Shown here: in pieces, positions 7,451 through 54,767 of the stretch | Layout of the letters: each line of letters starts with the position of its first letter | Numbering within the stretch: position 1 is the first letter of the stretch | NCBI GenBank assembly: GCA_033064195.1 | Contig: JARBJD010000308.1 | Coordinates: 22,675 to 86,674, forward strand | Origin: Blattamonas nauphoetae | Lineage: Eukaryota; Preaxostyla; Oxymonadida | Direction of reading: 5' to 3' | Length of the DNA stretch: 64,000 nucleotides | Position numbers and translations under genes: made by a program | Notes under the pieces: model-generated | Database searches by the model: none | Seen by the model: the letters and a program-made list of their open reading frames with translations, nothing else | What the model was told of the DNA's origin: nothing

Positions 7451-9970
7451 TTATCCTGTCCGATTGAGTTTGTTAATCGTTTGTGCACCTCCTCCGACTG
7501 TAATTGTGCTTGGAAATGACCCTGACTGTATTAGGATGCGAAATTGAGATGGATATAGGGTGGAAATCTGTGTTGTGTTTGTGCCAGGAGGCATGGAGGC
7601 TGAGAGATCTATCTGATTCCTCCTCGGTCCAACATCGTTGTCATTGGTTGTCTGAGCCTGCCTGACTGTCACTCCTTGTGTGAACGTCATGGAAAGCAGA
7701 GGTCCATCCTTGGCTGAAGTGCGTCGTGTTTTAGCCTTTGCTTTCGTCCAATCGGTAAGAATGGCAGCTTGGAAATGATCAATTGACGTATCTGTGTTTG
7801 ACAGTGCTTCATTTAAAATATTACTTCCTCTGGAAGCAGCAGACTTCTCTCTGTTTGATCTGGATGTGAGGGAACCGGATTGTTGGATATGGTCGACTTC
7901 TCCCTCCTTGTGAATAAACGCCATTGCGAGTGTTGTCATATTTGAAGTCCGTCCTTCTTCCTAATCTGCTCTGCTTCCATCTGCGCTCAGTTCCTATTCA
8001 TGATCGTCAGCATCAGACTCCATGGCAACCGCTGACGATCATACTGTCGGCTGCTCATTCTCATCATCCTCATTTGCGAATGGTTGAATGGTAATCCCAA
8101 ACATAGTTGTCGATCGAGATGTTTTGGTGGACGACGGTTGGACGTCGGGTTCTGTGATGAATTGGGTAAGCTCTGTTTCCAAAACAGTGTTTCTGATTTG
8201 CTTTGCTCCAACTTTCGCTCTTTTCCTCTCTTCTTCTCGCTTGAGCTTGAGTTCCTTGTGCTTCTTCTTCTTCTCTTCAGTTTCTGCTTTCTTCCTCAAA
8301 ATGCACAGAAATGTTGTCTCTCGTCGGATCTGAAGCATAATGGGAAAGCGAAGATGGTCTCCAATGATGTACATCCCAGCTATATCGATCACAATCATGA
8401 CAATATCCATTATTGAGAGAAGTATTGGTTGATTCCTGAAAACAAAAAGAGCAGCTGATGGAAGATGCTGCACCCATTCATATTTGACGTAATAAATATA
8501 CTTTCCAGAGGAGAAGAGGAATTGGCAGGCATCTGAGTAGTCCCATCAAAATAGGTAAAACTGGGATCAATTGATGTCAGTGCCTAAATTTGGACTGAGA
8601 TCAAATTTCAACTCTTTTCCTTTGAGATTTTCTCATTATCACTTCATTAATCATGTTCAATTCACTTCTTGTTTTCACATAATGCTCTTCAATATTTCAG
8701 ACAGCTCTTATTTCCCAAAAACACGCACGATCACAATCACCAACACTTCTTTTTTCGATGTATTCCCTTCATTGACTTTAGTCAGTGAGAAAAAACCATC
8801 AAAGAAGACATAATAACGCATTATCGACTTGTTTTTATAATTATTGTTGTAGAACAAACTGAAACAGCAGCACCCAAAGTTTGCATTTTCATGATCTATG
8901 AAGTGACCATTTTCCTTTTTACTTTTTTTTCCATTCAAATATCATATATAAGAAGACTTTTTTGAAATGAAAGAAACGAAATGGTATTGTAGGTATTTAG
9001 TGGGATCAGATCCGACTGGGATCACTGGGATCAAATCAGAAGCCTGGGAATTGGAGCATAATCATGACTTGGAGTGTGAAGAACGGCTTGTGGTTCGATT
9101 TTCCAATGCAATTATTGACCCATGGGCAGTGGTGATCAAATCCGGAAGTACCTTTGATGCATAGTCGAGAGTGACGGCTGGATTGAAGGCTGAGAAGTGA
9201 GAAAAATGAGAGTGTTGGAGAGATGGTGATCAAGGCAGAAAAAGAGGTCTAGAAAATGAGCAAGAGGAAAACGAACACATATCAAGCTTCAAATCGAATA
9301 ATTTGTCTTGATCGTACCCTCAGACAAACACTACTTTCGAGCACATTCCAGAGAAACTCTTGGGAAGATTTGTGAGTTTCTGCGGAGTCGAATCATCTTC
9401 GGAATCAAGAATATGAATGAAGGGATCAGCTAGATTGGTCCACGCAACATAAAAAAGGAGGAAGAACGCACCCAAGAAGACAAGCGCTGTAGCCTTGGAT
9501 AACAAGATGAATAGCAAGAAAAACAGACCGAAGTTGAAATGATGAAAGAAAGAATCGATGTTCAACCAGAAATGAAGACACACGAAAGGATAAACTTGAC
9601 TGGGAGGAGGATCCAGGATAAATCCGAGGACCAGCGAGTGGAGCGAAGACATTTCGGTTTAATAAATTCAGGGTTTGAAGAAGGAGTTTTGTTACATGCA
9701 CAGGGAGCACATGGTGTCTGATGAGAGCAGAGTATGAATATGAGCGTTGAACAGGCTGCAAAATGCTTGAACAACACAGAGAAATTACACCGTTGCAAAA
9801 ACCACAGATGATAGAATGGATTGGACGATATTGGAAAGGGTGAGGAGAACAAGCGAGACGAAGGTGAAGTTAGACGAGCTGTGAGAGAGATGGAAGATGG
9901 AGAGATGATTAAACAGTAGGTACAGAAAATGGAGAATGAAAAGACCGGATAAACGATGTGGAACCATCCG
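7451..9970 (-). CDS. DHHC palmitoyltransferase-like gene, interrupted by CP1
   Basis: DHHC proteins transfer palmitate to cysteines of target proteins at endomembranes. Here the motif FDHHCPWVNNCIGKSNHKPF (about 9080-9140) is followed by TM segments, with an upstream double-TM region (LFFLLFILLSKATALVFLGA). Downstream come a TM segment (SIMDIVMIVIDIAGMYIIG), a basic KKKKHKELK tail and a long C-terminus. The frame crosses CP1 perfectly once CP1 and one target copy are ignored (MLQ, then FLFSSGKYIYYVKYEW). An 84-nt intron (about 7960-8043) removes three stops near the C-terminus, and further short introns are needed near 9240-9330 and at the 5' end. The cysteine-rich domain is degenerate: two expected zinc cysteines before DHHC are Ser and Gly. 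Exon limits at the 5' end are uncertain. Confidence 0.6.
8526..9046 (-). mobile_element. CP1: 521-bp non-autonomous hAT element in the DHHC gene
   Basis: Ends CAGGCATCTGA and (inverse) CAGGCTTCTGA, flanked by a perfect 8-bp duplication GGAATTGG (8518-8525 and 9047-9054). A 22-bp near-palindrome (8560-8581; half-site ACTGGGATCAA) begins 34 bp from the left end; the other end has direct half-sites TGATCCCAG. Both ends match those of CP4 for 45-75 bp, so CP1 is an internal-deletion derivative of the CP4 subfamily. No ORF of note inside. Confidence 0.9.
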
Positions 9971-10189
9971 GGTTCGACATACTAGCAATCGAGGAGCTCG
10001 ATCTTGACAAGGGTGTGAGTCTCCACCTCTCTGAGATCATCAACTGGAATTGAGTGAAAATGAGCATAGTACTCGATTCATCCATGCTGTGTGATCAAAA
10101 GGAAATGAACAAGAAGTCGAATGTGAAGGAAGAGAAGGAAAGGAGCTCTCCATGTTTCCTTTGATCCATAAAAATGTCCGAATGGTAAA

Positions 10190-10773
10190 ACGCCTATTTC
10201 TCAGGATTGAGACAGCATTGTGAAAAAAGAGGCAAAATTCAGGTAAAGTGAGTGTGTATGAAGTGTACGAAGGAATAATGTGAAGTTGAAAAGCGATCAA
10301 TAAAGTTACACATAACTGACAAAGTCAAGTCACTGACTGTTCCCAAAAAACACTGACACGAGCCTTTTTCTCGACAACTATAGTGAATTATGACCGCATT
10401 TTTGTGACCTAACATGCTTCACACTTCACTCTACAATATTTTTCAACTTTTAGTTTCAAAAACGTCCTATATATTGAGAAAAACGCTCATGTCAGTGAAA
10501 AACCGACTGACAGTCACTGACTGAACCTGGATCTCCCCTTAGAATTTCTCAGAATCTTCAAAAATGTGAAATTTCATTTAATAGTCGTGAAAACTGTTGG
10601 AAAAGTCTTTTAGAACATGCAATATATCACATTTTTGGACAGGCATGGAGATCTCGATCTTCGGCAAAACTTCTATTTCTCCGAGATCCGACCCATAATT
10701 AAAAATCTCAAGTCAGTGACTGTCAGTCGGATTTCTCGATTTTCGTGATTTCCAGTCAGGTCACCCATGTATA
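10190..10773. repeat. Right subterminal region of T2, homologous to T1
   Basis: Matches 6505-7081, including the inverted pair at 10502-10521 and 10711-10730. Confidence 0.85.
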
Positions 10774-10778
10774 ATGAT

Positions 10779-11792
10779 GACTTTCTAATTCCGTGTAACT
10801 TGAATAGGGCAGCCTCGGGGCTATTTTACATGATGAGGGAAGTTTCAAAACACATTGATCACGTAGCAGGAACGGATCCTGAGGCTTGGTTGAGTTTGCT
10901 CCCCCCGACTGATCAATGGAAGTCAGCACGTTTATTACAGCAACCCAGCATTCCTTCTGGGGGACAAATGGAACAAGGACAAGATACAACAATGGAGGTT
11001 CCTAGATCGGTCACACCAGCAATTTTCCAGAACCCCGACGTGGGGTCACAGACTTGGAATACGATTAATGGAAACATTCCGACAATCATGTTCGGTGCAC
11101 CCTTAGTCGCAAATCAGGCCGAGCGAGCTGAAGATCTGAAGGATACTGGACGATTGCTGCCCCACTTTGAGTGGGAGGATGAAGAGGTGGAGGAGCTCAA
11201 GACGAAGATGGGACAAGCTCCATCTGACGTAAAAATGTATCCTGACGCAATTAGTAGGAGGCCGTGGAATAGAGAATATCTGGGGAACCTGAATAGATCG
11301 CTTTATTCTCTAGAGACAGAATCGTTTCACCTCTTCAAATTGGGCACATCTGCCCTGACCAATTCAACTTCAACAGAAGATTTGGCGCGAGGTATCGAAC
11401 TGATGACCTTAAAGAGTGCAGAACTTGTGAAACGTGTTAACGATACCAGGATTGAGCATATTTTGAAGATTCCAGTGGATGGAGTGGGAAGTGCCGCAAA
11501 GATGGAGTCGCTGACAAAACAGAACGAAAGGATCGACGCAGCGATGGTAGAAGCCCAGAAACGAAGAGGACAGCGAAGAAGAACTCAGAGAATCGACCCG
11601 TTGTTTTTTCGGGATGGCCCCGACAGGGGGCATTTTCAACCACAGTCGCCCCAGCATTCCCGTCCTTCCTCTCAGAGAAGTACGTACCACCAACGGCAGG
11701 GGCAGACACACAAATTCCAGCCTCGTCGGACACAAACCCCACCCAGGCAGACCCACCAACCATTTTTTCGGAAAGGGAATCAGCAGTATTAG
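10779..11792 (+). pseudogene. gag: DIRS gag, 3' part
   Basis: Continues the gag frame from codon GAC 10779 (DFLIPCNLNRAASG) to the TAG-equivalent stop ending at 11792. The body is helical. The C-terminus is strongly basic and Gln/Arg-rich (RRGQRRRTQRIDP, HSRPSSQRSTYHQRQGQ), as expected for nucleic-acid binding without a zinc knuckle. It overlaps the start of the frame that later encodes the recombinase. Separated from its first 50 codons by T1 and T2 (about 7 kb). Confidence 0.75.
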
Positions 11793-11809
11793 AAGATCGG
11801 CTCGCCGAC

Positions 11810-13750
11810 GTGGACAACGGACGTGTCGTGAAGGCCGAGAGGGGAGATGGGATTGGGGGAAGAGTTGGGAGGTTTTGGAGGGCGTGGGGAGAGTTCGGAC
11901 TATTGGATGTAATGAGAGAAGGGGTGAGGATCGATTGGAACGAACTGGGACCTCCGCGCACTGCGGGACACCCATTCGAACTCAATTTACCAGAAAAAGA
12001 AAGAACAGGAATGAACGAGACGATCGAGGAGGACTTGAAGCAAGGGGTGATAAGGGAAGTTTGCAAAGAGGAGGTCAAGTGTTGGAATGCAGTTTTCGTG
12101 GTGGCGAAGCAGGACGGAACATGGAGGCGTATCCTGGACTGCCGGAGGGTCAACATTCACGTGATTCAAGACCACTTCAAAATGGACGGGGTGTCCACGG
12201 TCGCAGCAACCGTCACGCAGGGCGCGTGGATGGTTGCAGTAGACCTGTCCCAGGCCTACACACACATCCCGTTGCACCCACAAGACCAGCCATTCTTCGG
12301 GTTCCTGTGCGGAGGCAGGGCGTTCATGCAGCAAACTCTTTGTTTTGGTCTCACGTCCGCACCTCGGCTTTTCACGAAGATTCTGCGCCCAGTCGTGGGA
12401 AGGTTCAGACCCAGTTTTCCTCTGGTCGTTTACCTCGACGACTTTTTGGTTCTTGGAGCAACTGCAAACGAGGCAGAGCTGAACGGATCATCGCTTCGAA
12501 TACAGCTGGAGAAACTTGGGTTTACGGTCAACAGAGACAAGTCCACCGAGGTCGCTTCTCAACGAATACATTTTTTGGGTCTGGAATGGGATTCGGAACT
12601 TATGAGAGTCGAGGTGGGGGAGAAGAAGCGGAAGTCAGTGAGGGAGGCTGTAAAAGAGAGACTGAAACGAGCGAGGAAGGGGGAGAACGTGAGGGTGAAG
12701 ACAGTTGCATCGTTAGTGGGCAAGATGCAAGCCCTGGCATTTGCAGACAATCTGGCACACTTCCAAACTCGGAGGTTGATTGCTTGGAAAGAGGGGGTTG
12801 TCCAGGGGGAGGGCTGGGGAGGAGTCGGGGTGCTTGGAGGGGGAGAGATAGAAGATCTGGAATGGTGGTATCAGAGACTGGCAAAAACGATGGGCCGGTC
12901 CATCAGGCAGTTCGAGCAGAGTGTCGTCCTAAATACGGATGCGAGCGAGTGGGGAGTGGGCGTAATTTGGGAACGAGATGGGAAGAGAGTGAGCTGGCAA
13001 CAGGAATTTCAAGAAGAAGAAGGTTGTTGGTCGAGCAACAAGCGAGAGGCGACAGCAGTGGTAAAGGGATTCGCAGAAGGTGTCGAAAGGGGGATGATTC
13101 GGGAGGGAGACGATGTGTTAGTTCTGTCCGACAACATGGTCTGCGTCGCAAACATCAACCGACGATCAACAGCACTCTCACTCCTCCCACAATTCAGACA
13201 GTTATTCGCCATAGCAGATCAGGTGAAGTGCAGGTTGTGGTCGGAGCATATCTCGGGAGAGGACAACGAGGTGGCAGATCGGTTTTCACGAATTCGAGAC
13301 TCAACGGATTACAAACTCAATCATCAGGTATTCCAGCAGATCGTAGAGGATTTCAAGTGCAGCCCGAGTGTGGATGCCTTTGCATCAAAAAACAACAGAC
13401 AGACCAAAAGATATTGGTCACTCGTCAACGAAATGGAGTCGAGCGGAACGAACGGCCTGTTGCAGGATTGGCGAAAAGAGTCGTGCGTTTTTGCACACCC
13501 ACCGATCCCTCTAGTTCAGAGGGTCCTACAGAAGTGGATGCAAAGCGAAACAATGATGATCCTCGTCGTCCCGGACTGGACGACTCTACCAGGGAGAGAC
13601 ACGATCGAGAAGTATGCGGAACGATCACTACTATTGGGGAGGACGGAGGAAGTGACGGAGGAAGGGAGCGGGATGACAGCGGCGGGGAGCGGCCGCCCAC
13701 CCGGCTTGCTCCGAGCATACTTGATGGGGAAATTTGGGAGGGACTTGTAA
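11810..13750 (+). CDS. pol: DIRS reverse transcriptase-RNase H
   Basis: 646-aa ORF with an RT domain: AKQDGTWRRILDCRRVN, VDLSQAYTHIPLHP, FGLTSAPRLFTKIL and the catalytic VVYLDDFLVLG. RNase H follows (LNTDASEWGVGVIW ... KREATAV ... LSDNMVCVANINRR). The C-terminal segment SVDAFASKNNRQTKRYWS ... PPIPLVQRVLQKW is the methyltransferase-like module typical of DIRS elements. The enzyme copies element RNA into DNA. The frame is intact. It lies 17 bp after gag in a different frame and is overlapped by the recombinase frame, the usual DIRS arrangement; translation would need re-initiation or separate transcripts. Confidence 0.93.
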   Translation: MDNGRVVKAERGDGIGGRVGRFWRAWGEFGLLDVMREGVRIDWNELGPPRTAGHPFELNLPEKERTGMNETIEEDLKQGVIREVCKEEVKCWNAVFVVAKQDGTWRRILDCRRVNIHVIQDHFKMDGVSTVAATVTQGAWMVAVDLSQAYTHIPLHPQDQPFFGFLCGGRAFMQQTLCFGLTSAPRLFTKILRPVVGRFRPSFPLVVYLDDFLVLGATANEAELNGSSLRIQLEKLGFTVNRDKSTEVASQRIHFLGLEWDSELMRVEVGEKKRKSVREAVKERLKRARKGENVRVKTVASLVGKMQALAFADNLAHFQTRRLIAWKEGVVQGEGWGGVGVLGGGEIEDLEWWYQRLAKTMGRSIRQFEQSVVLNTDASEWGVGVIWERDGKRVSWQQEFQEEEGCWSSNKREATAVVKGFAEGVERGMIREGDDVLVLSDNMVCVANINRRSTALSLLPQFRQLFAIADQVKCRLWSEHISGEDNEVADRFSRIRDSTDYKLNHQVFQQIVEDFKCSPSVDAFASKNNRQTKRYWSLVNEMESSGTNGLLQDWRKESCVFAHPPIPLVQRVLQKWMQSETMMILVVPDWTTLPGRDTIEKYAERSLLLGRTEEVTEEGSGMTAAGSGRPPGLLRAYLMGKFGRDL

Positions 13751-13776
13751 GTGAACTAGAGATTGAGGAGGACTCG

Positions 13777-14883
13777 ATGCTGTGGATTTTGGCAAGTTAT
13801 AGCGAAGCTACAGTGCGACAATATGCCGGGGCCATCCGGAGGTGGATAGAGGAGGAAGCAGGGGCAGGCAGGGATTGGAAGGACGTGGAGCAGTTGAAGG
13901 TAGTCAATTTTTTGTCACGATGGTTTAAAAGGACGGGATCAGCGAATACTACAGCTTCAGCAAGGAGCGCATTGTCTTTTCTGGCGCAGCTTCTGGGAAT
14001 GGGACCTGTCGGAGAGTCCCTCGCGGTGAAGGCCACAATGAGAGGTATACGGAAAGTTCATCCTTCAACGCCGAAGTATACAGACACGTGGGACGCTGAC
14101 GTCATGGAAGGAGAAATTTTGAAGGGATGGGTTAGGCGGAAGACGATGCGTGAAAGAGAACTGGTTTTGCATCTATCGGCCATCCTCTCGCTTCAACACG
14201 CACTCAGGTTCACGGAGATGGCGAGGATTAGAGGGGAATCGGTTGTGGTTGATAAGGAGAATCACTCGATCAGTTTCAAAACAAGGCTGAAGACTGGCGA
14301 AAGCGAGGAGACGATAACATTAGAGGAGGGGAAGATATTTCAAGGGCTGAGAGCTGTGGACTGGGTATTGGAACTAGATCGAGTAAGAGGACAAGATCGG
14401 ACGGGACAGCTGTTGAGATTGGAGGGCAGAGATCAGGATGCAGGGGATATCGCGAGGCATATTAAGGAACTAATGGCGAGAGCGGGAGTGAACACGGACA
14501 AGTATGGACCGTATACTCTCAAACATGCTGGGCGATCAAAGCTAAAAGAGAAGGGAATTACATACGCGGAGATTGCCAAACGAGCTAGATTATCGACGAC
14601 TTCCAAGACGCTGCAACGCTACTACATCAAACCCATTTCTGCTCCCAACGAGCTCAAACTTTCTTCATCTCTTCGAGATAAAGCCATTAGTCCACAATCA
14701 CTGAAGAGTGATTCTGACAATGGTTTAGAAAGAAGAGATGAAGAAAGTTTCAAACCTCCACCCGCCCCAGCAACTCGAAGATCAGATAGACTTATACAGC
14801 AAAAAGGAAATTCATCTCTTCTTTCTAAAGCTCCCAACAGAGTAACAAAGGGAAGATCACGTCACGTGAACAAAGGTAAGTGA
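13777..14883 (+). CDS. DIRS tyrosine recombinase
   Basis: The tyrosine recombinase integrates circular DIRS DNA. The N-terminal SAM-like DNA-binding segment (YSEATVRQYAGAIRRW) precedes the catalytic domain: Arg I in QHALRFTEMARIR, the H-x-x-R box in TLKHAGRSKLKEKG, and the nucleophile Tyr in KTLQRYYIKP. I start at the ATG 13777 (MLWILASY), but the same frame is open back to 11614 across the entire RT ORF, so the true start could be upstream. The C-terminal 80 codons run through the internal complementary region and end at TGA 14883 within the right terminal repeat. Confidence 0.88.
   Translation: MLWILASYSEATVRQYAGAIRRWIEEEAGAGRDWKDVEQLKVVNFLSRWFKRTGSANTTASARSALSFLAQLLGMGPVGESLAVKATMRGIRKVHPSTPKYTDTWDADVMEGEILKGWVRRKTMRERELVLHLSAILSLQHALRFTEMARIRGESVVVDKENHSISFKTRLKTGESEETITLEEGKIFQGLRAVDWVLELDRVRGQDRTGQLLRLEGRDQDAGDIARHIKELMARAGVNTDKYGPYTLKHAGRSKLKEKGITYAEIAKRARLSTTSKTLQRYYIKPISAPNELKLSSSLRDKAISPQSLKSDSDNGLERRDEESFKPPPAPATRRSDRLIQQKGNSSLLSKAPNRVTKGRSRHVNKGK
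14654..14754. repeat. DIRS internal complementary region
   Basis: The left half (14654-14712) is the reverse complement of the left element tip (3443-3501). The right half (14713-14754) is the reverse complement of the right tip (about 14938-14979). The two halves meet at GAGTGATT/CTGACAATGG, which fixes the element ends. It lies inside the recombinase ORF. Confidence 0.9.
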
Positions 14884-14979
14884 AGAGCGGAAGATTATTC
14901 ATTATTTAGACGTATTTAATACATTTCAAGGGAATTATACTCAAACTTTCTTCATCTCTTCTTTCTAAACCATTGTCAG
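14843..14979 (+). repeat. DIRS right terminal repeat and tip
   Basis: Inverse of 3480-3600, then the unique tip CTTTCTAAACCATTGTCAG complementary to the right half of the internal region. Confidence 0.9.
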
Positions 14980-14989
14980 AACAAATTAT

Positions 14990-21369: not shown

Positions 21370-21592
21370 TTGAAAGTGGAGAGGGGGATAGTGAGAAGAC
21401 AATAATACGCCGATCAAGGGGGGCATGATCGTTTCTAGGACTTATCTTTCTGATAAGACCGAAAATCAAACATCCTCTATTCCTTCAAGTCGAATCGGAT
21501 TCAAGAAAAGAAGAGAGCATTTTTCCGTACAGCATTCCCATTCTACCCACTTTTTAAGTCGCGAACAAAGGGTGTGATCAAACAAATTGCTC

Positions 21593-22840: not shown

Positions 22841-23339
22841 TTACTCATATTATTTTTCGCTGTCTCATTAGTCTCAGCCACCCAGTTCGTTCCATTCAAC
22901 AATGCCCAGACCTTTGACACTGATCTCATCGATCTCAGCTTTTTTGATCTCAGAAAATAACTAGTGTTCAAATTCTCATAAAACTCGAAATAACGAAGTA
23001 AAAGACCCGCTATCCGTGTTGAATTTTGTTTATAAGCACTTTCATTGAAATATCTAGATGAATCGTCCCACAATAATTCTTCATCTCGATCTGATTGAAG
23101 AACTGGATGAATCACGCTTGTTTATCAAATAATTTATTAATTCCACCGCGACAGATCTCCTTTACCATGTCTCGACGATTATTTCTCTCTTCGAGTGATT
23201 TAGTCAGCAGGTTAACATTCGTTGTTCAATTGTATATTAGTCTTCGAGATTTCTACTCTTTATCACGATCCTCAGTCCTATTTTGACTTGGTTAATCTAT
23301 ACTTTCCATTATTTATCTCTTTATTTCCATCTCTCCCAG

Positions 23340-24006
23340 ATAATCTGTCAGTGACCAGTGAGATCACAAATGACACGTCAAAGCCGCCTCTCGAATGACC
23401 CCTACTCGTTTCTGCGGACTCTCCTCGTATGTTTGGAATTCCCTGATTGCTGGTGCAGGCGAACAGATTCTGCAATCACCTCCGATCGTCCAGAAATGGT
23501 TTGCTGTTTTGGGTTGGTCGTTCTCTACGCGGCTGTCTTTGACTGTCGCATCGTCAACCGTCCTCTCTCCAAACTATTCCTTGCGTCCCTGAACGATGCA
23601 TTGTTACCAGATTATCTTTCCCATTCTCGACTTTTGAACATCTCCAAAACAATTCTCGTTTATCTCGTCGAAATGGGATGTGCCCCGCATTCTCACCCTC
23701 CACAGCCACCTCCGATCTGTTTCAGGATCATCCAGTCCGTTGACTGTCATCTGAGTCTTAAATCTCGTTCCTGCAACCGAGCCACAAACAGCCATCCGAA
23801 ATCGAAGAATCCAAACACTCTTGAAGAGAGTGTTGGTCCACATAGCGACAACTCTGCATGATACATTGTCAGGGATGAATCAACTTGTTCAACAGCCGGC
23901 TGCGGCCGTTCAACTGCGAGCTACCGGTCCGAAGCGAAAAGGAGTGTCAATACATCCCGCAAATTCCGCTCCAATATCAATTATGAATACTGCCCAAGTT
24001 GGATAG
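23340..24006 (+). CDS. Intron-rich coding region, possibly HECT-like (CP2 cargo)
   Basis: Several open segments in different frames are joined by plausible tiny introns, for example GTATGTTTGG...GGTGCAG at about 23429-23460 after NDPYSFLRTLL. One segment reads CCFGLVVLYAAVFDCRIVNR then PLSKLFLASL, resembling the part of HECT ubiquitin-ligase domains with the pattern LG-x2-I-x-A-x-FD-x-R-x-(V/L)-x-x-PLS-x-x-F. That match is short and tentative; no catalytic Cys region was found. The last segment (TTLHDTLSGMNQLVQQPA) ends at TAG 24006. The exon structure is unresolved. It could be part of the same gene as the next feature. Confidence 0.35.
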
Positions 24007-24099
24007 TCAATGACCGGAAAGGAAAGGATCAGCGAAACCCACGAGGTGCTATTCAGATGACGCTTTTGGAAGGCTGAATGATCCCTCCGATTTTTCGCC

Positions 24100-25709
24100 C
24101 TTTGGACTGAGCACGCGTTGAATCGCTTTTCAGACGATGAGGAACTCTATCTCGCCACCACTCCTCCAAACGAGCTCTCTTCTCAACACTGTCGTCACCC
24201 TCCTCAGATCGCCGTCCAAGCAGCTCAGCGACGAAGTTCCAACCGAGTTCTTTCAGAATCAGCATTTCAAGAACAGTATGGACAAGGTGGATGAGGTCGA
24301 CTGGAACTTGGCAAACGAAACACTCGTCGAGCGGTGTCATCCAACCAGACTTCGTTGTGCATCAGCCAGTTGCTGTTGGGATGCGACGAGGAGGGGAGAG
24401 CAAGAAGAAGATCTTGGAGATGGAGAAGCAGAGACAGTCAGACGCCTTGCGGACTGTGGAATGGAGAGCGAGAACAGTGCAGACGAAACACCGAGATTTT
24501 TCAGACCAAATGCGAGCAACATCCACTCCCACGTCGTCCTCACTCCACACACAACAACAATCCCAGTCGACTCTCTCTCCCACCCTCACCCACACTCCCT
24601 CCCCAAAACCCTCTCCCAACCCCTCTCGAATGAACTCGTCCTTCTCCGTCTCGCCGAAGCCTCGAAGTGCCAGTGCTGATCGGAGTTCACCACCGTCTCG
24701 CCCCGCATCCAGCTCACCCGAACGCGCTTCGCCTTTTCCTCGCTACTCGCGCCCCACTTCCGTGTACGGACACAAATACAAGAACTTCGACGACCTCCTC
24801 CTGTCCTGACTTGGAACCCGGCCGACGAAACACTCCACCCGCTTGTGCAGAGGAAGCTGCTTCGGAAGGTCGAGGAGGATGCCGAAGAGGAGGAGGAAGA
24901 AGACTGGGACACGCTTTTCGACAGCACCGAGCCAATCCATCCGTCTCTTCAGCCAGCACGAAGCACATCGCCCAAAGCAACACACGAAAGGAAAACACCA
25001 CCCGCACAGATATTCACGTCACACACGCTCGTCGCAAACCCAAACCAGGCAGAGAACGACACACTCAAGCGATAGATCGAAAACGACGCCATTTCCTTCA
25101 CAACAGAAGGATCGTACACAGATGATCCCCCTCTCTCTCCACACTTGCAGTTGGAGTCGTATAATCCAAACTTCGAGCTGTGGCAGAGTCTCAATGACAA
25201 CGTCGACAAAGGGGCGAGGGCAGCTGAAGAGAACCGGCGACATATCGAAACCGAAGTGCTCGACGAACTCGCAGTCGACGCTGTCGACACATCTGTCACC
25301 TACGAGCAGCAACTGCGGGAGAGCTCCTTGCGAGACGTGGTGCGGAAGATGAAGCCGTTTCTGAAGCAGTCGTCGATTCTCATACCGACACTCCCCAAAA
25401 GCGACGCTCTCGTCAACCACCAATCTGGAGAAGACACTCCCGCAGAAGAGTGCAACCACAACGAGGCCGACCACAGCGATCGAAGCCGCAGTTCCTGCAG
25501 ACGATGGAAGACAGGCCGAGAAACAGACCAGCGACTCACACGAAAAGCTGAAGCAGAGCTAGCAAACGCAGAAATTGCGCAAAGAGGAAGTCAAGTTAGT
25601 GGAACATGCGAATGATGTCGAGAGCGAGTACTGGGAGATGGAACAGGAAGATGAGGAGGAGAGGCTGCACGGAATCGACGAACACCATCTGATGAACAAC
25701 AGGAATTAA
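24100..25709 (+). CDS. Unknown disordered/coiled-coil protein (CP2 cargo)
   Basis: Frames change repeatedly, but GT-AG introns restore them: for example a 45-nt intron ending at 25075 removes a TAG before IENDAISFTTEG, and a 34-nt intron at about 25411-25444 joins PKSDAL to KSATTTRPTT. The conceptual protein has a Ser/Pro-rich segment (SPKPRSASADRSSPPSRPAS), an acidic run (EEDAEEEEEEDWDTLFD), then helical and coiled-coil sequence ending HGIDEHHLMNNRN and TAA at 25707. No family recognised. GC-rich like the T1 cargo gene. The start and several 5' exons are unresolved. Confidence 0.45.
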
Positions 25710-26367
25710 GCAACGATGCAGAGGAAGGCCGAGATCATGACGTAGCGTTGGCCAACACGACAGACAATCTAAAGCAAAAGTTGAGTGGGTTTTCCTCTTT
25801 TCTGTGTTTATTCAATCACACTACAACCATTTCGCTTTTTCAAGATTCTTATTTTGACCAATTGACACAACAATGAGACAAATATAGATACGCCTAATTA
25901 AGTCATTGATCTCAGTCCCAAAAACCGGAACTGAGATCGATCGATCTCAGTTTCTGCTTGATTGATCTCATGTATCAAAGGTCTGTCAATGCCTCAAATG
26001 GCTGTGTTGATATTGCTATCGACTATGCCTTCGCCCAGGAAGGGAAACCGTATTCAGACCTCCCATGCTATAACCGTACAGGTGAATGCTGCCGTTTCGG
26101 TCCCAACTGCTTCGATTCCGCTGGACTCATATATGTGGCATACAGGCAAGCCCGTCAAAAAGTCCCCCCAACCCATCAAGGATACCCTGGCGGACTCAAG
26201 AGTGTTGGAGTGGGCAACGCCAAGCCAGGCGATATCCTCTGGAGATCAGGCCATGTCGGCCTCCTTGGAAAAAACGACAAGGTGGTCCATCTTTCCAACC
26301 CAAACCGCGGAGTGTACATCTTGAGCCTCTCAAACTTCAAGCAGTTCCAAAGACCAACAGAAGCCTA

Positions 26368-27740: not shown

Positions 27741-27754
27741 TACCGTGTTTGCTA

Positions 27755-37848: not shown

Positions 37849-38072
37849 GTGACAAGAAAAAACAGGAAATGCTCAAGTGATATTAAGAGCACCTGAATAC
37901 TCTTCGACGAAGAGATGACACCAGGGATGAACATATAAATCAACATTTTCCACGAATTGTGAGAATTGTGTCGAGCTTGGGGATTCAGACGTGAAAAACA
38001 GGCGAAAGAGTAAGAAGGGAAAGGGGACAGCCTGTGGGTGGTGTATGAAGGAACCTGAAAAATGCCGAAAGC
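37849..38072. other. Short intergenic gap, kinase promoter / eIF5A 3' flank
   Basis: 224 bp between the minus-strand kinase start and the eIF5A stop. AT-rich, no ORF supported. Confidence 0.5.
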
Positions 38073-38126: not shown

Positions 38127-39747
38127 CAGGGGTTTGATTCGTCAGCACATTTTAGTGCATTCGTCGGATCAAATGATCCGACGGGCACTTTTTTGGCGTC
38201 AGATCATCGCCTATTTGGGAGCTTCGAGTTTTCTTTCTTTTTCTCGTTTTCCACACTTTTCAGCTGTTCATTTCACCTCTCAATTGAAAAAAATCACTTT
38301 GCTGTCTTCATAATACAAAAGAAAGGAGTTTGTGTTCGAATTAAAGACACGTTGGGTGAAGTGGACGGATCTGTCCCTTTGTGATCCCGCCACTTTCTGA
38401 GAAATCATCGATTTCGAAAAGAATTCCCAGTTAATTCTCACAACTTTCGATCATGATATGTTCATCCTACTCTCAAATTGTGTCTATCCCTGTACACATG
38501 ACTTTAGTTTTGGAATCAACCCGGACCCATTGGTTCGAAGCAAGTATTGAGAAATTTCTTTTTTCACTTCATTTCAACTTTTTTGTTCGATTAAACACAG
38601 TTTTTGAACAAACAAAGGCGATATAATCATTTTATGATAGATGTGGGACACAAAAGATTTTGGAGACATATTTCACATTTCATCATAAATACGTAACAAG
38701 GACAGTTGTAGAGTGAAGGAGAGATTGCAGGAAGCTTATTACACCACCTAAAGGAGTGTGAACTCAATTGGAGATGCTCGGGAATCTCATTTCTTTTCTC
38801 ATTTGTTATGGGTTGATCTCGATTCTCAAATTGACGATTTCCACACGGTATCGAAAAAATCATCAATAAAAACTGAATGAAAACACGTGTGAAATGGATG
38901 AAGTCGACATGAACGTGATCCGTCCTTCAATTGGAGAGATCTCTTTCTGCGTCCATAATCGGAGTAGGACGACATGTTATCTCTGTGCTTGCCTAAATTT
39001 GTGAAGAGAATGAAAAATAAGGAATGAGAAAGAGAGCAAACGTGCAAAACACAGAAAAGAGGCTGGATCGGTTCGGATTTGTGGAGTGACGAACCTGTTC
39101 GTCTAATTTGTTGAATCAACAAAGTTGGATGGATAAACACTGAAAAATGTGAAAACGAGAAGGAAATTGAGTGATGAAGGAAATAGGGAGATATTGGCAA
39201 GAAAAGTGATGAAACAATTGTTGTGGATAAAAATTGAACAATTGAGTTTTGTATGATGGAAAACACACCCGAATCGCATTTCAGCGAACATCAGGTCATT
39301 GTCCGTGAGTGGGTTAATCTTGAACACAGGATCCTTGAACGGGGATTTTTGGGCGGGCAAGAGGGGATTTCGGCTTTTGATCACATCCATTATTGGGTTT
39401 CTCAATTTTTCGGATTCTTCTGATTAGGTTTTCGCCATGTCATCTGAGACATGGAAGGCGAAACGGATTGTGATATGACTTTTTCCGGAAAACGGATATC
39501 TTGTCACATTGATTGCGGGATGATCAGACCTTGATCCTCCTTTCTCCACTTCAAGACCATTTTACCTTTCCGTTGACTTTTGTAGTGTAAACCGATTAGT
39601 TCACGAATCATTTTCACAAATATGAGATCTTAATTGTCTATAGATCGCTCAAAGAGGGAATTATGTCCCGAAAAAGAATTATGTCCCATGTCTATGAAGT
39701 GTCGGATCAAAAGTGGTCCGATCAGTCGGATCCTAATCAGAAGCCTG
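38127..39747 (-). mobile_element. CP3: 1621-bp hAT-type element inserted in eIF5A
   Basis: Ends CAGGGGTTTGATTCGTCAGC and (inverse) CAGGCTTCTGATTAGG; perfect 8-bp target duplication TTCATGGT (38119-38126, 39748-39755). A 22-bp palindrome-like site (38162-38183; half-site CGTCGGATCA around an AA centre) starts 35 bp from the left end; the right end carries direct half-sites TGATCCGAC. No transposase. It carries a small three-exon gene. Confidence 0.93.
38826..39390 (-). CDS. Small unknown protein, three exons (CP3 cargo)
   Basis: Exons 39390-39269, 39102-39053 and 38992-38826 with GT-AG introns of 166 and 60 nt give exactly 113 codons (112 aa). The protein begins MDVIKSRNPLLPAQKSPFKD, continues INPLTDNDLMFAEMRFG, and has a Tyr/Arg/Ser-rich middle (KHRDNMSSYSDYGRRKRS) and Cys/His-containing end. 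No family recognised. It lies wholly inside CP3 and is transcribed in the same direction as the host eIF5A gene. Both junctions keep phase, so it looks like a normal gene carried by the element rather than random ORFs. Confidence 0.5.
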
Positions 39748-48434: not shown

Positions 48435-49204
48435 CAGGCTTCTGATTTGATCCCAGTGATCCCAGTCGGATCTGATCCCAGTTAAAATCTACAATACCGT
48501 TTCGTTTCTTTTCACAATTTTCCTTCTTCAAATATATGATCTCTGAATAGAAAAAAGAGATGAAATGAAAATGTTCAGTAGATCGAACAAAAACGAGAGT
48601 CTTTTGTCTCTCTTCTGTTTCGGCGGATATGAATAAAATATCAAAGTTTCTAATCGTAATCCGAAGAACACACAGTGATTTCTTCATGGCGTTGCACTTA
48701 AAGTTGAAAAGATGTCCAAAACAAGTGAGATGAGTGAGAATTACAAAGTAATGGGGACACATTCTCCAGACGGAATCAACTGAAGATCCAAATGATATGA
48801 ACACAACAAGCACCGATTTCGCTCGAGTTTGGTTGGTGATTGGGTCATCTCTCGCATCATAATCCTCATCTGAGCGGTATTTCATTTGATCTTTCATAAG
48901 ATATTGTCTCTGTTCTCAGCTTGTTGTCAGTGCTGCGACAAGGACTCCGTTCATCTCATCATTCCGGATGGCAGTCGAATTCTTGAATTTGTAATGCACA
49001 TATAATATTCAGTCCAACTCATCTTGCAATATCAAACTTTTGAATGATTCATTCAAAATTGAACGTTCATCCCATCTTATCACCTCAAATGAGCATGCAG
49101 TCCACATGATTACCTCTAAAGAACATCCACCTCATCTGATCACCTCTAAAGAACATCTTTCTCATCTGATCATCTCGAAAGAAAATCCAACCCATCTATT
49201 CACC

Positions 49205-49995
49205 GAAATAGTACAGCCATCCCACCAACTCGCCTCGAATGCCCATCCTTCCCACCAACTCGCCTCGAATGGGCATCCATCCCCCCAACTCGCCTCGAAT
49301 GGGCATCCATCCCCCCAACTCGCCACGAATGGGCATCCTTCCCCCCAACTCGCCTCGAATGGGCATCCATCCCACCAACTCGCCTCGAATGGGCATCCTT
49401 CCCACCAACTCGCCTCGAATGGGCATCCTTCCCACCAACTCGCCTCGAATGGGCATCCTTCCCACCAACTCGCCTCGAATGGGCATCTGTCCCCCAACTC
49501 GCCTCGAATGGGCATCCTTCCCCCAACTCGCCTCGAATGGGCATCCTTCCCCCCAACTCGCCTCGAATGGGCATCCTTCCCCCCAACTCGCCTCGAATGG
49601 GCATCCTTCCCCCCAACTCGCCTCGAATGGGCATCCTTCCCACCAACTCGCCTCGAATGGGCATCCTTCCCCCCAACTCGCCTCGAATGGGCATCCTTCC
49701 TCCCAACTCGCCTCGGATGGCCATCCTTCCCCCCAACTCGCCTCGAATGGGCATCCATCCCCCCAACTCGCCTCGAATGGGCATCCTTCCCACCAACTCG
49801 CCTCGAATGGCCATCCTTCCCCCAACTCGCCTCGAATGGGCATCCTTCCCCCCAACTCGCCTCGAATGGGCATCCTTCCCCCAACTCGCCTCGAATGGGC
49901 ATCCTTCCCCAACTCGCCTCGAATGGCCATCCTTCCCCCCAACTCGCCTCCAATGGGCATCCTTCCCCCCAACTCGCCTCGAATGACCATCCTTC
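49205..49995 (+). repeat. 30-bp minisatellite, left outer array (~26 copies)
   Basis: Unit CTCGCCTCGAATGGGCATCC plus TTCCCCCCAA, with occasional 29-bp and variant units. The array at 53555-54355 is the same unit in inverted orientation. All six frames are open because the unit is 30 bp and lacks stops, so the ORFs here are artefacts. Confidence 0.97.
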
Positions 49996-50615
49996 CGCTC
50001 ACTCTCCCCCTCCGCCACCTCCTTCCGCACACTCTCCCTCCGCCACCTCCTTCCGCACACTCTCTCCCTCTGCCACCTCCTTCCGCACACTCTCCCCTCT
50101 GCCACCTCCTTCCGCACACTCTCTCCCTCCGCCACCTCCTTCCACACACTCTCTCCCTCTGCCACCTCCTTCCGCACACTCTCCCCCTCTGCCACCTCCT
50201 TCCGCACACTCTCCCCCTCTGCCACCTCCTTCCGCACACTCTCTCCCTCCGCCACCTCCTTCAGCACACTCTCTCCCTCTGCCACCTCCTTCCGCACACT
50301 CTCCCCCTCTGCCACCTCCTTCCGCACACTCTCTCCCTCTGCCACCTCCTTCCGCACACTCTCCCTCTGCCACCTCCTTCCGCACACTCTCCCTCTGCCA
50401 CCTCCTTCCGCACACTCTCCCTCTGCCACCTCCTTCCGCACACTCTCTCCCTCTGCCTCCTCCTTCCGCACACTCTTCCCTCCGCCACCTCCTTCCGCAC
50501 ACTCTCTCCCTCTGCCACCTCCTTCCGCACACTCTCTCCCTCTGCCACCTCCTTCCGCTCACTCTCCCCCTCCGCCACCTCCTTCCGCACACTCTCCCCC
50601 TCCGCCAACTCTTCG
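49996..50615 (+). repeat. ~30-bp minisatellite, left inner array (~21 copies)
   Basis: Unit CCACCTCCTTCCGCACACTC plus TCTCCCTCTG, varying 27-30 bp. Related in composition, when inverted, to the array at 53128-53520. Confidence 0.97.
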
Positions 50616-50941
50616 ACCGCTTCCGATTTTCAACAGCTCTACTTATAGCCATTTTCTATTTTACCTGTTCTGGGACATGTTCCTCTCTCTCACACTTCTT
50701 ATCCTTTCGATAGTGCTTTTGTTTTCCCAAATCGGAGTAAATTTCGAAAACTGTGGGCAATTGTTGAACGCCCATCTCCAAGTTCATGTCGCTTCCTGTC
50801 CAACGTCATCTGACCCAACCTACATTGTCTCAATTTGATAGTCACATCAAACTGAAGACTCAGACTCCACAACTCCTCCCTTTCGAAATCACGAAAGACA
50901 TGTCTCATCGGACCTGATTTCTCCACTGATACCAGAAACCA

Positions 50942-52965
50942 TTGATGATAATCGGAATGACCGAACAGAGGCGGTTCGCACTCAAACGAAAGGGAAAAAA
51001 ACAGAAAGGCAAACTGTTTCAGAAATGGATGTCAAGGGAAGAGTGTCTTTTTCAAGATGATCAATCAGTCTTTATCCGCCAAGGAGAGGGAATAATCTGC
51101 CGGATCTGCAATCATCACAAGAGCAATGTCGGAGCACACAGAGGTGAATATGTCCGAGAACCCAGCTGTCCTAGTTATCCCGGTAGCCTGCTGGACCATT
51201 TGAAGACAAAAACACACAAAAGGGCGGTTTCTAGGTGGTTGCACGATATGGATGTGAGAGACGAGGCTCGCCAAGTCGAAGATCAACCTTCAAGACACAA
51301 ACACGTAAAGAACCAATTCAGAGCAGTGAATCAGATTAGCCATCGACACTGCTCTGTAAACGATTTCAAATCCTTAACAAATCTTCTAAATAGTGTTGAC
51401 AACGTGAAATCAGTTTCAAACGCAGATTCTTCGGACTACGTCAGATTTTGGCAACTCGCATCAATTCTTGACCAAAAGTACCTGGCAGATTGGCTCTCTC
51501 AAATTTCATCCAAAACTCCTTTTTCACTTTCTCTTGATATCTCAACTGATATCTCGTCAATCTCGGTTCTGTGCGTGAATCTTCGCTTTCTAAACCAATC
51601 ACTTCAACCAGAAACATGCCTTCTTGGCTTGGCCGAAATGAATGCCGGAACAAAAGGCTCCCAAATATATGCTGCATTCAAGGAGACACTGCGTGAGAAC
51701 GGAATCTCGGTGAATCAGGTTGTATCAGTGGCGACCGATGGGGACCCTGCTATGTCAGGTCCCCATTCGGGTTTCAAGGCATGTCTTGAAAATGATCACC
51801 GTCATGTGTTGTATCACAATTGTGATGCTCATAGCTTTCAACTCGCCCTCAAATCAACTTTTCAAAAACCTGAAGACTCTGTCTCGGCAATCCTCATCAA
51901 AAACGCAGCATCCATCATCAACATGATCACAAAGAATCCCTCTCGCAAGAAACAATTTGCTCGAGCTCAACAGTCACGACACAAAAAAAAGTTCAGAAAT
52001 TATCACGACCTCTTCAAATTCGATGGTCAACCTGTTTCAAGGCCGTAACGCAGGTTTTTGAATATGCGGACTGTGTTCAGGACGTTCTAAAAGAGGCTGG
52101 AGAGACTCAGGCTCTTCATCTCGTGCAGTTGCTTTCAGATCCGTTTGTACTCCTACGATTGTGTGGACTTGGGTTTCTCCTCTCTTGGGCGGAAGAAGCA
52201 AACAAAGAGCTTCAAAGCAATGCAATGACATTGATGAGGTCTGAAGAATGCATCAATCGGCTCATCGATCGATGTGACAATGTGACAATCGATGAACTGA
52301 ACGAACACCTTTGCTCGCAAATCAGTAAACACGAATATCTTCAATGTCTTCCTTATGTTGAGCAATGTGCGCAAGAATGTGGCGAAATGGCACGGAGTCT
52401 ATCGGTGGCTCTGCGAACAAGGTTTTCTTCTCGAACGCAGGATTCAATCTTGTCACTGTTCTCGCACGATTCCCTGATGGCTCCAAATTCGATAGAACAA
52501 GATCAAAAGGTCAATGCCCTTGCTTCTCGGTTTGGTCATTTCATTTTACCAATCGTCAAACAGCACACCATCGTGCATTGGCGACAAACTAAATCCACAT
52601 ATCAGCTCGAATTCGCTGATATTCCTTTCACTGAGGCAGGAATTGTCGACACAATTCTGACTCATCCTCTGTTTGCTGGGCAATCAGCAATCTTACCTTT
52701 ACTACGAATTCTGAAAACAATCTTCGCCACGACAGTTGCAACCGAACGAGAATTTAGTCTAATCCATTACATCAAACGCAAAGAAAGAAGTCAGCTTCAA
52801 ACGAGCCATCTGGAGCTCTTGGCACGCATCTCTCACAACTCTCCTCTCCTCATCCCCGACGCTGATTTGGATGACCTTGTTGAAACTTCTCTTCGCCTCA
52901 CAATTCGAAAAACCAAGAGAGCGCATTCGACACCATCTGATGACGATTCTTCAACAGACGAATGA
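50942..52965 (+). CDS. hAT transposase of CP4, with one -1 frame break
   Basis: N-terminal zinc finger of TTF/BED type (GIICRICNHHKSNVGAHRGE ... HLKTKTHKRAVS). Catalytic first Asp in SLDISTDISSISVLCV; second in ATDGDPAMSGPHSGF; the C/DxxH box CDAHSFQLAL. The third acidic residue and hATC domain are in TTVATEREFSLIHYIKRKER. The reading frame shifts by -1 within a run of eight A (about 51980-51987): upstream it reads RHKKKFRNYHD; downstream the conserved-looking KVQKLSRPLQIRWSTCFKAV is one frame back. A-AAA-AAG is also a classic slippery heptamer. Otherwise intact, ending DDDSSTDE and TGA. Most likely the source of activity for the CP family. Confidence 0.85.
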
Positions 52966-53127
52966 CGAAAGATCCTCATCTGTTGGCGTCCCTAAAAAGC
53001 TGTAAACAACTCAATTCACTCTCATTTTGTTCTTAGATATCAAATTCAAGAAAAAGTCGCATTAAGGATTGATGTTTAAAAAAGATGGGACTTGAAATTC
53101 GAGAATGAGAAAAAACTCATTTCAAAG

Positions 53128-53520
53128 GAATGAAGTGGGAGATGGTGCGGGAGGTGTTGGCGGATGGAGAGAGTGAGCATGAGGTGTTGGCGGAGGGGGA
53201 GAGTGAGCATGAGGCGTTGGCGGAGAGGGAGAGTGAGCATGAGGCGTTGGCGGAGAGGGAGAGTGAGCATGAGGTGTTGGCGGAGAGGGAGAGAGAGCAT
53301 GAGGTGTTGGCGGAGAGGGAAAGTGAGCATGAGGCGTTGGCGGAGAGGGAGAGTGAGCATGAGGTGTTGGCGGAGAGGGAAAGTGAGCATGAGGCGTTGG
53401 CGGAGAGGGAGAGTGAGCATGAGGTGTTGGCGGAGAGGGAGCGTGAGCATGATGTGTTGGCGGAGAGGGAGAGTGAGCATGAGGTGTTGGCGGAGAGGGA
53501 AAGTGAGGAGGATACCCTTT
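53128..53520 (-). repeat. 30-bp minisatellite, right inner array (~13 copies)
   Basis: Unit GAGAGTGAGCATGAGGTGTT plus GGCGGAGAGG, very regular. Inverse orientation counterpart, diverged, of 49996-50615. Confidence 0.97.
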
Positions 53521-53554
53521 CGAGGTGAATCGGTGGGAAAGATGACCATTCAAA

Positions 53555-54355
53555 GTTAGTTATTGGGAAGGATGCCCATGCGAGGCGAGTTGGGGGGAAG
53601 GATGCCCATTCGAGGCGAGTTGGGGGAAGGATGCCCATTCGAGGCGAGTTGGGGGGAAGGATGCCCATTCGAGGCGAGTTGGGGGGAAGGATGCCCATTC
53701 GAGGCGAGTTGGGGGGAAGGATGGCCATCCGAGGCGAGTTGGGAGGAAGGATGCCCATTCGAGGCGAGTTGGGGGGAAGGATGCCCATTCGAGGCGAGTT
53801 GGTGGGAAGGATGCCCATTCGAGGCGAGTTGGTGGGAAGGATGCCCATTCGAGGCGAGTTGGGGGGAAGGATGCCCATTCGAGGCGAGTTGATGGGAAGG
53901 ATGGCCATTCGAGGCGAGTTGGGGGGAAGGATGGCCATTCGAGGCGAGTTGGGGGGAAGGATGCCCATTCGAGGCGAGTTGGGGGGAAGGATGCCCATTC
54001 GAGGCGAGTTGGGGGAAGGATGCCCATTCGAGGCGAGTTGGTGGGAAGGATGCCCATTCGAGGCGAGTTGGTGGGAAGGATGCCCATTCGAGGCGAGTTG
54101 GGGGGAAGGATGCCCATTCGAGGCGAGTTGGGGGGAAGGATGCCCATTCGAGGCGAGTTGATGGGAAGGATGGCCATTCGAGGCGAGTTGGGGGGAAGGA
54201 TGGCCATCCGAGGCGAGTTGGGGGGAAGGATGCCCATTCGAGGCGAGTTGGGGGGATGGATGGCCATTCGAGGCGAGTTGGTGGGAAGGATGGCCATTCG
54301 AGGCGAGTTGGGGGGATGGATGCCCATTCGAGGCGAGTTGGGGGGGAGGATCGCA
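53555..54355 (-). repeat. 30-bp minisatellite, right outer array (~26 copies)
   Basis: Unit GATGCCCATTCGAGGCGAGT plus TGGGGGGAAG, the reverse complement of the left outer unit, similar array length (about 0.8 kb). Confidence 0.97.
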
Positions 54356-54767
54356 ATTGCGGTGATAAGATGAGATGGCTGTTCAATTGAGCTGATCGAA
54401 CATGGCAACTCGCGACTGCTTAACATGAATACGTGAGAACACACTCATCAAACCTGACTCATCAACTCGGGAGTCCAACTGACCATGATTACTGGTTCTG
54501 AATTGTCTTGTTTTTATCTTTCCAAAATTTCTTCCGATCTGTGCATTGTTATCTCTCACCCATTCAACTAATGAATACCAATTTCTAATCTAAATTCAGG
54601 AGATTCAAGACTAGAGAGTTTTTCCGAGAAAGTGGGAAATGGAGTTTGAAATTGAATGAGGAAAATCTCGAAACTCCTATTTAAGAAAGTGTGGTCAGTC
54701 AAAAAATGGGGACTGGGATCAATTGATCCCAGTTTTACCTGTTTTGATCCCACCACTCAAATGCCTG

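What the first reader, a model, noticed from the sequence alone, without database searches (positions are those of the whole stretch)
8526..54767. hAT (CP) family with a 22-bp GATC-containing palindrome at a fixed 34-35 bp from one end
Four independent elements share one layout: CAG tips, 8-bp target duplications, and a 22-bp palindrome whose near edge is 34, 34, 35 and 34 bp from the terminus (CP1 8560-8581, CP2 25930-25951, CP3 38162-38183, CP4 54712-54733). The opposite end of each has direct copies of the half-site. The half-site spelling differs by subfamily (ACTGGGATCAA in CP1/CP4, ACTGAGATCGA in CP2, CGTCGGATCA in CP3), and the direct copies at the other end change with it. This suggests matched transposase/DNA-site specificities, with one end bound as a dimeric head-to-head site and the other as tandem monomer sites. 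I know of no described hAT group with this fixed asymmetric architecture.
Basis: partly seen in the sequence, partly recalled or inferred. Interest (0 to 1): 0.9.

Follow-up and report, generated by a model that had tools for sequence, protein, structure and literature searches.

The report
Matched DNA landing pads of hAT transposons
A family of jumping genes in an unnamed eukaryote carries, at a fixed distance from one end, a mirror-image docking site and, at the other end, three evenly spaced single sites; the site spelling changes together with the DNA-reading part of the enzyme that moves them, much as in the well-studied house-fly element Hermes.

Summary
CP1-CP4 are hAT-type elements with CAG tips. 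A 22-bp palindrome starts 34/35 bp from one tip (P end); the other end (D end) holds three same-facing half-sites. In the 88.3-Mb host genome the tip lies at 34/35 bp in 15 of 15 plus 39 of 40 fetched copies, and in 17 of 19 subfamily P ends the best palindrome sits there (some of these ends were found by looking for it). Also regular: single sites outside and inside the palindrome, D-end sites at about 14, 23 and 37-39 bp, and targets centred on AT (59 of 63). Palindrome spelling covaries with D-end spelling over 11 subfamilies (permutation p 2.5e-5) and with the finger residues equivalent to the DNA-reading residues of the Hermes BED domain (Mantel p 0.0018), not with the rest of the finger. 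The matched-specificity reading holds. The claim that no such architecture is known does not: Hermes has a quasi-palindrome at a rigid distance on its left end, bound cooperatively by two BED domains. This is a new variant of a known kind; its value is a natural panel of finger/site pairs and an AT-centred target preference, unlike Buster (TA).

The parts
8526..9046 (+). CP1, 521-bp non-autonomous element, P end on the left
   Evidence: CAG/CTG tips, exact TSD GGAATTGG
8560..8581 (.). CP1 palindrome ACTGGGATCAATTGATGTCAGT (imperfect, 8 of 10 pairs), 34 bp from tip
8595..8603 (+). CP1 inner single site CTGAGATCA
9000..9033 (-). CP1 D end: three same-facing sites (9000-9008, 9016-9024, 9025-9033)
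22907..25985 (-). CP2, 3079-bp element, P end on the right; sits beside a duplicated NlpC/P60-like gene copy
   Evidence: tips, TSD 7 of 8, empty paralogous site at 21564-21800
25930..25951 (.). CP2 palindrome ACTGAGATCGATCGATCTCAGT, 34 bp from tip
25907..25915 (-). CP2 inner single site CTGAGATCA
25963..25972 (-). CP2 outer single site CATGAGATCA
22921..22953 (+). CP2 D end: three same-facing sites (22921-22929, 22930-22938, 22945-22953)
38127..39747 (+). CP3, 1621-bp element, P end on the left
   Evidence: tips, exact TSD TTCATGGT
38162..38183 (.). CP3 palindrome CGTCGGATCAAATGATCCGACG, 35 bp from tip
38198..38206 (+). CP3 inner single site GTCAGATCA
39701..39733 (-). CP3 D end: three same-facing sites (39701-39709, 39716-39724, 39725-39733)
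48435..54767 (.). CP4, 6333-bp element, P end on the right; carries the transposase and two inverted 30-bp tandem arrays
   Evidence: tips, TSD 6 of 8; near-identical genome copy L017/L094 has an exact TSD
54712..54733 (.). CP4 palindrome ACTGGGATCAATTGATCCCAGT, 34 bp from tip
54745..54754 (-). CP4 outer single site GGTGGGATCA
54690..54698 (-). CP4 inner site, degenerate (CTGACCACA)
48448..48481 (+). CP4 D end: three same-facing sites (48448-48456, 48457-48465, 48473-48481)
50930..52048 (+). CP4 transposase, first open frame (zinc finger, first two catalytic Asp)
   Evidence: P0001; 112 matches in the genome
51874..52965 (+). CP4 transposase, second open frame (RW, ERxFS); the window copy is split by a frameshift and was not mended
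   Evidence: P0002

Best explanation
CP1-CP4 belong to one diverse lineage of cut-and-paste hAT-type transposons. Each subfamily's transposase has one N-terminal BED-like zinc finger that reads a 9-bp site (four specific bases, then GATC or GGTC, then one base). On the P end two sites lie head to head 34/35 bp from the tip and are most likely bound together by two fingers; further single sites lie near 14 bp and at 69-71 bp in most P ends. On the D end three sites face the same way at about 14, 23 and 37-39 bp. The rigid phasing most likely reflects the fixed positions of the fingers in a multimeric transposase, as shown for the Hermes octamer: the P end is captured first through the palindrome, then the D end is synapsed, cut, and both are inserted at 8-bp targets centred on AT. 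When the helix residues of the finger change, the sites at both ends change with them. Shown here: the phasing, the co-variation of the sites, the association with the finger residues, the TSDs. Inferred: binding, oligomeric state and order of events.
For: Fixed distance in 15 of 15 and 39 of 40 fetched copies and 17 of 19 P ends. Ends located by TSD alone (L024, L025, L029, L040, L045) have the same plan, though the palindrome of L024/L025 is weak. For six P ends the D end was looked for by its TSD: 4 were found with exact TSDs, and all 4 carried three sites at 13/14, 22/23 and 37-39. Palindrome arms match the own D end better than those of other subfamilies (3.21 against 2.32 of 4 bases, 11 subfamilies, p 2.5e-5; 9 collapsed subfamilies p 2e-4; control flank p 0.78). 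The 9 residues before the zinc His track site spelling (Mantel r 0.43, p 0.0006; r 0.44 given the rest of the finger) while the rest does not (r -0.03). The four columns equivalent to Hermes Q64, S66, N67, R70: r 0.42, p 0.0018; 0.06% of random four-column sets do as well. Residue next to His: D with C/T as first base 5 of 5, G with G 7 of 7. TSD AT at positions 4-5 in 59 of 63. CP1 and CP3, in which the transposase search found no match, keep the arrangement.
Against: No binding was measured. Pfam hits to the hAT dimerisation domain and the finger stay below the curated cut-offs, and no PDB chain matched the alignment. On the tree only 3 independent D/G pairs exist, all concordant but p 0.25. 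L028 and L023 have no significant palindrome at 34/35 and L024's is weak. Thirteen of the 20 loci gave no P end that I used. L116 and L117 (about 25% identical) have none at 34/35 but an imperfect one about 59 bp from their tip. One candidate D end with no matching TSD (L033) has its sites about 12 bp further in. Some P ends were found by looking for the palindrome itself.
Confidence: 0.85

Rival explanations
1. Common descent alone: all copies inherited one ancestral end, and the palindrome and spacing have no function.
For: Within a subfamily the copies are nearly identical, so fixed spacing there says nothing on its own.
Against: Both arms and the D-end sites change together between subfamilies while the control flank does not; CP3 relatives with GTCAGATCA in both arms keep symmetry while the outer flank has drifted.
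Confidence: 0.05
2. The palindrome is an operator or promoter element of the transposase gene rather than a transposition site.
For: In the subfamilies other than CP4's in which both gene and P end were read, the P end lies upstream of the gene.
Against: In the CP4 family the gene is inverted and the P end lies downstream; CP1, CP2 and CP3 of the window, without a transposase match, keep the palindrome; the D end carries the same sites.
Confidence: 0.07
3. The GATC core is a host DNA-methylation or host-factor site, and the palindrome matters for that.
For: GATC is in nearly all sites.
Against: Two subfamilies use GGTC (L031/L033, L105), and the bases that vary most sit outside GATC and follow the transposase finger.
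Confidence: 0.04

Closest known systems
Hermes (hAT, house fly), left end with STR1-STR2 quasi-palindrome and BED zinc finger (PMC10368747; passages, section 7, part of section 17 read)
   Same: One end has a head-to-head pair of finger sites at a rigid distance from the tip, plus a third site; the other end has same-facing repeats; finger helix residues just before the zinc His read the bases; 8-bp TSD.
   Different: Here a 22-bp near-perfect palindrome at 34/35 bp instead of a quasi-palindrome within bp 11-27; 9-bp GATC/GGTC site instead of AAGT; an outer site as well; three conserved phased sites on the second end, where the Hermes right end binds no BED domain; CxxC...H...H finger instead of CCHC; TSD centre AT.
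Herves (hAT, Anopheles) subterminal motif CG/AATTCAT (PMC3143072, abstract read)
   Same: Short transposase-binding motif at both ends with unequal use of the two tips.
   Different: No fixed palindrome in the abstract; unrelated motif.
Kat1 (domesticated hAT, Kluyveromyces) (PMC4763223, passages read)
   Same: BED finger, CxxH, subterminal hexamers whose polarity differs between ends.
   Different: The word palindrome does not occur in the paper; single domesticated enzyme.
Buster family of hAT (TSD nnnTAnnn; PMC3517528, passages read)
   Same: 8-bp TSD with a central two-base preference.
   Different: TA there, AT here; TA occurs in 0 of 63.

Membership tests
hAT superfamily | 8-bp target duplication and CAG-type short inverted tips | tested here: met
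   Exact 8-bp TSDs for CP1, CP3 and for L017, L024, L025, L029, L035, L040, L045, L100, L101, L102, L112
hAT superfamily | D, D, CxxH, RW and E (ERxFS) motifs in the transposase (motif list recalled; CxxH also named in PMC4763223) | tested here: met
   Alignment A1: D257/D261, D324, C352-H355, R418-W419 invariant in 12 of 12; TER(E/T)FS in 7 of 12, the others being truncated or divergent at the C-terminus
hAT superfamily | Match to the Pfam hAT dimerisation domain over its cut-off | tested here: inconclusive
   E 7e-4 to 0.3 in 4 of 7 proteins, all below 21.4 bits
Buster family of hAT | TSD nnnTAnnn | tested here: not met
   No T at position 4 in any of 63 TSDs; AT at 4-5 in 59
Ac family of hAT | TSD nTnnnnAn (recalled) | tested here: not met
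   T at position 2 in 19 of 63, A at position 7 in 21 of 63
Hermes-type end architecture | Head-to-head site pair at a rigid distance from one tip, plus a third site on that end | tested here: met
   Pair in 17 of 19 P ends; inner site at 69-71 bp in 15 of 19 by the scan
Hermes-type end architecture | Octameric ring, cooperative BED binding, second end not bound by BED | not testable with these tools
   Needs protein work; the three phased D-end sites suggest a difference

The most novel reading that the evidence does not exclude
A hAT lineage with its own target class (nnnATnnn) in which one zinc finger's DNA code has been rewritten several times inside a single genome, each time with matched changes at about seven phased sites per element, so that the genome itself records a finger-to-site recognition code for transposons.
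Probability: 0.5. Interest if true: 0.7.

Novelty: new variant of a known kind. Interest (0 to 1): 0.5.

Why it matters
Hermes gave one structure of how a hAT enzyme finds its ends. This lineage supplies many natural variants of the same problem: sites at exact phases, two unequal ends, and fingers whose helix residues differ where the sites differ. It makes two open questions testable: whether the rigid palindrome anchor is general to hAT elements, and how related transposons in one genome avoid moving each other's copies.

Tried and rejected
GATC methylation reading: disfavoured because L031/L033 and L105 use GGTC. Gene-operator reading: disfavoured by the inverted CP4 gene and by window elements without a transposase match. 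Pure descent: disfavoured by co-variation. PDB profile search with the transposase alignment gave nothing. Viral contigs gave no relative. Host naming failed: no match to the Zn_clus, zf-C4 or Elicitin families (the control genomes did not ring either, so absence is not shown), and a paper search by assembly size gave only unrelated papers. Paper searches for nnnATnnn with hAT and for C17orf113 with hAT gave nothing on hAT. Distant clades: L115 and L118 showed no palindrome; L116/L117 have none at 34/35 but an imperfect one (8 of 9) about 59 bp from their tip, and their flanks TCGACAGA and GTAAGGGG lack the central AT; L119/L130 has another palindrome about 32 bp from a CAG, but both copies lie in one duplication, so the tip is unproved; L131/L132 share no palindrome. 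Candidate P ends not used: L109 (36 bp, 7 of 10), L113 and L115 (7 of 10, no supporting sites), and L103, L104, L106-L108, L111, L116-L119 with none. A candidate D end of L033 without a matching TSD was left out. Structure prediction was not run: the longer proteins come from loci that its rule does not list. One search joined pieces in the wrong order for minus-strand loci (they are not turned by the tool); corrected from then on, and L020 was turned wrongly until. In one search L028 was read at 35 instead of 34 bp (2.97 against 2.17, p 1.3e-4); one search repeats the test at 34. The helix segment was chosen after seeing the alignment; the four Hermes-equivalent columns were set from the paper's residue numbers.
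Full report
What was checked. The window is part of contig C233 of an unnamed 88.3-Mb eukaryotic genome. CP1 and CP3 have exact 8-bp duplications; CP2 matches in 7 of 8 and CP4 in 6 of 8 positions. CP2's insertion is shown independently by an unoccupied paralogous stretch in the same window (21564-21800, 190 of 237 aligned bases identical and no gap at the junction).

Chance. The CP4, CP3 and CP2 palindromes occur 308, 33/38 and 114 times per strand with up to three mismatches, against 0 for each pattern read backwards. I read the flanks of 15 of the 31 exact CP4 sites: 15 of 15 have the tip at 34 bp. I read 40 more sites chosen from the listings (20 of the CP3 pattern, 10 CP2, 10 CP1-type): 39 of 40 have CTG at 34 or 35 bp; L062 has none, and L069, counted among the 39, has one on both sides. 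These 55 are a sample of all sites. Within a subfamily this only shows inheritance, so the test is between subfamilies.

Other subfamilies. The CP4 transposase has 112 matches in the genome. P ends were found by exact TSDs alone (L024, L025, L029, L040, L045), by the break of identity between copies (L031, L033), and by a palindrome scan (I used 7 of the 20 loci). In 17 of 19 P ends the best 10+2+10 palindrome in the first 110 nt starts at 34 or 35 (L024 and L112 tied with another place); L028 and L023 fail. The 19 are not all independent: CP1/CP4, CP3/CP3b/L114 and L100/L042 are groups. The seven ends were found with the palindrome at 33-37 bp as a criterion, so they do not test spacing by themselves. 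For six P ends (L100, L101, L102, L112, L105, L042) I looked for the other end by its TSD: four had it exactly, L105 and L042 did not in the stretch read.

Full plan of the ends. P end: usually a single site near 14 bp, the head-to-head pair at 34/35, and a single site at 69-71 (15 of 19 by the scan; the inner site of window CP4 and L017 is degenerate). D end: three sites facing the tip at 13/14, 22/23 (9 bp after the first) and 37-39, in 15 of 15 D ends. Some of these ends had been picked by their GATC content, but the four found by TSD were not; a candidate D end of L033 without a matching TSD, with sites about 12 bp further in, was left out. CP2's longer partners are L034/L081 and L035/L095, about 9 and 11 kb with TSDs GGAATGAG and GGGATGAT at both ends and a 746-aa open frame. 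CP4's relative L017 has an exact TSD and a 722-aa frame that is open over the D, D, CxxH, RW and ERxFS motifs, though its last residues differ from the window copy.

Co-variation. Comparing the four bases before GATC in the palindrome arms with those in the D end over 11 subfamilies (L028 included, whose TSD matches in 7 of 8 and whose tip is CAC) gives 3.21 of 4 for own and 2.32 for others (p 2.5e-5; dropping any one p at most 3e-4; nine collapsed subfamilies p 2e-4). Before the L028 register was corrected it was 2.97 against 2.17, p 1.3e-4, and a control flank gave p 0.78. The two arms follow each other (p 5e-6, 19 ends, related ends included).

Finger and site. Over 16 transposases with known sites, similarity of the nine residues before the first zinc His follows site similarity (Mantel r 0.43, p 0.0006; partial r 0.44, p 0.0008), the rest of the finger does not (r -0.03). 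In Hermes the side-chain base contacts are made by Q64, S66, N67 and R70 in front of H71 (PMC10368747, section 7). The four equivalent columns give r 0.42, p 0.0018; 0.06% of random sets of four of the 76 variable columns do as well. The residue next to His is D where the first base is C or T (5 of 5) and G where it is G (7 of 7); N and S are mixed. On a tree of the catalytic part (17 rows), D/G changed at least three times and the base went the same way in 3 of 3 independent pairs, too few for significance (p 0.25). L105 (CTGAGGTC...SLLDH) and L031 (GTGAGGTC...SVLGH) are sisters with good support.

Target. Read outward from the P end, 59 of 63 target sites have AT at positions 4-5 (AT dinucleotides make up 6.7% of the window) and 35 of 63 have G at position 6 (L062 and L069 were dropped; most of the 63 were read on the P side only). 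Of six further elements with both TSDs read, five agree (L017, L035, L100, L101, L112) and L102 (CCAACCAC) does not. Of ends read on one side or with a mismatched TSD, L031, L043 and L110 agree and L028, L033 and L105 do not. Buster elements prefer nnnTAnnn (PMC3517528, passages); the Ac form nTnnnnAn is recalled. A search of the held library for nnnATnnn with hAT gave no paper on hAT.

What it is. The transposases carry D, D, CxxH, RW and ERxFS in hAT order, with weak, sub-threshold Pfam support. They form a divergent hAT-type lineage with a CxxC...H...H finger that weakly resembles zf-C17orf113. In Hermes two BED domains bind the left-end quasi-palindrome cooperatively, three left-end sites are held by protomers of three dimers of an octamer, a shift of one base pair severely impairs cleavage, and the right end binds no BED domain (passages, section 7 and the first part of section 17). 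The present ends follow the same logic on a larger scale. What is new here is the site, its place, the phased sites on both ends, the AT-centred target and the matched diversification.

Limits. No binding data; host unnamed; the palindrome is degenerate in part of the group and not seen at 34/35 in the about 25%-identical loci examined. NlpC/P60 genes and long open frames without introns hint at a protist such as a parabasalid; that is inference.

Noticed in passing
window 48435-54767; L017, L018: In the CP4 family the transposase gene runs from the D end to the P end, opposite to the other subfamilies read; it is flanked by inverted 30-bp tandem arrays (about 49034-50641 and 53074-54372), so an inversion between the arrays is likely.
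   Followed up: partly
L031 and L033, P end near position 1124 of the gene-oriented sequence: The 4-bp spacer between the palindrome arms is flipped between two copies (TGTC against GACA), as if a hairpin or recombination between the arms had inverted it.
   Followed up: no
window 21578-22039 and 25910-26734: NlpC/P60-family (peptidoglycan-hydrolase-like) genes in a eukaryote (E 7.5e-11 and, below the cut-off, 4.4e-4); CP2 sits at the start of the second copy.
   Followed up: partly
window 14990-15502 / 15876-16388 and 26366-26691 / 27417-27742: Long nearly perfect inverted repeats (513 bp, 99%; 326 bp, 100%) around 373 and 725 bp, perhaps other elements.
   Followed up: no
window 11551-14883: 1110-aa open frame with a tyrosine-recombinase N-terminal domain hit (Phage_int_SAM_1, 2.9e-5).
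   Followed up: no
window 33349-37872: 1507-aa open frame with a kinase domain closest to Myt1/Wee1 kinases in the PDB.
   Followed up: no
window 44174-45193: Tc1/mariner-like transposase (HTH_Tnp_Tc3_2 plus DDE_3).
   Followed up: no
L119 / L130: A 24%-identical hAT-like locus has a different palindrome (ATCGAATTG-gc-CAATTGGAT) about 32 bp from a CAG; both copies lie in one duplicated stretch, so the tip is not proved.
   Followed up: partly
L116 / L117: Another distant hAT-like pair with tip CAGGGG and an imperfect GATC-containing palindrome about 59 bp from the tip.
   Followed up: no
63 target sites: G at position 6 of the target read outward from the P end in 35 of 63, against C at the mirror position in 21 of 63: insertion may be oriented.
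   Followed up: no
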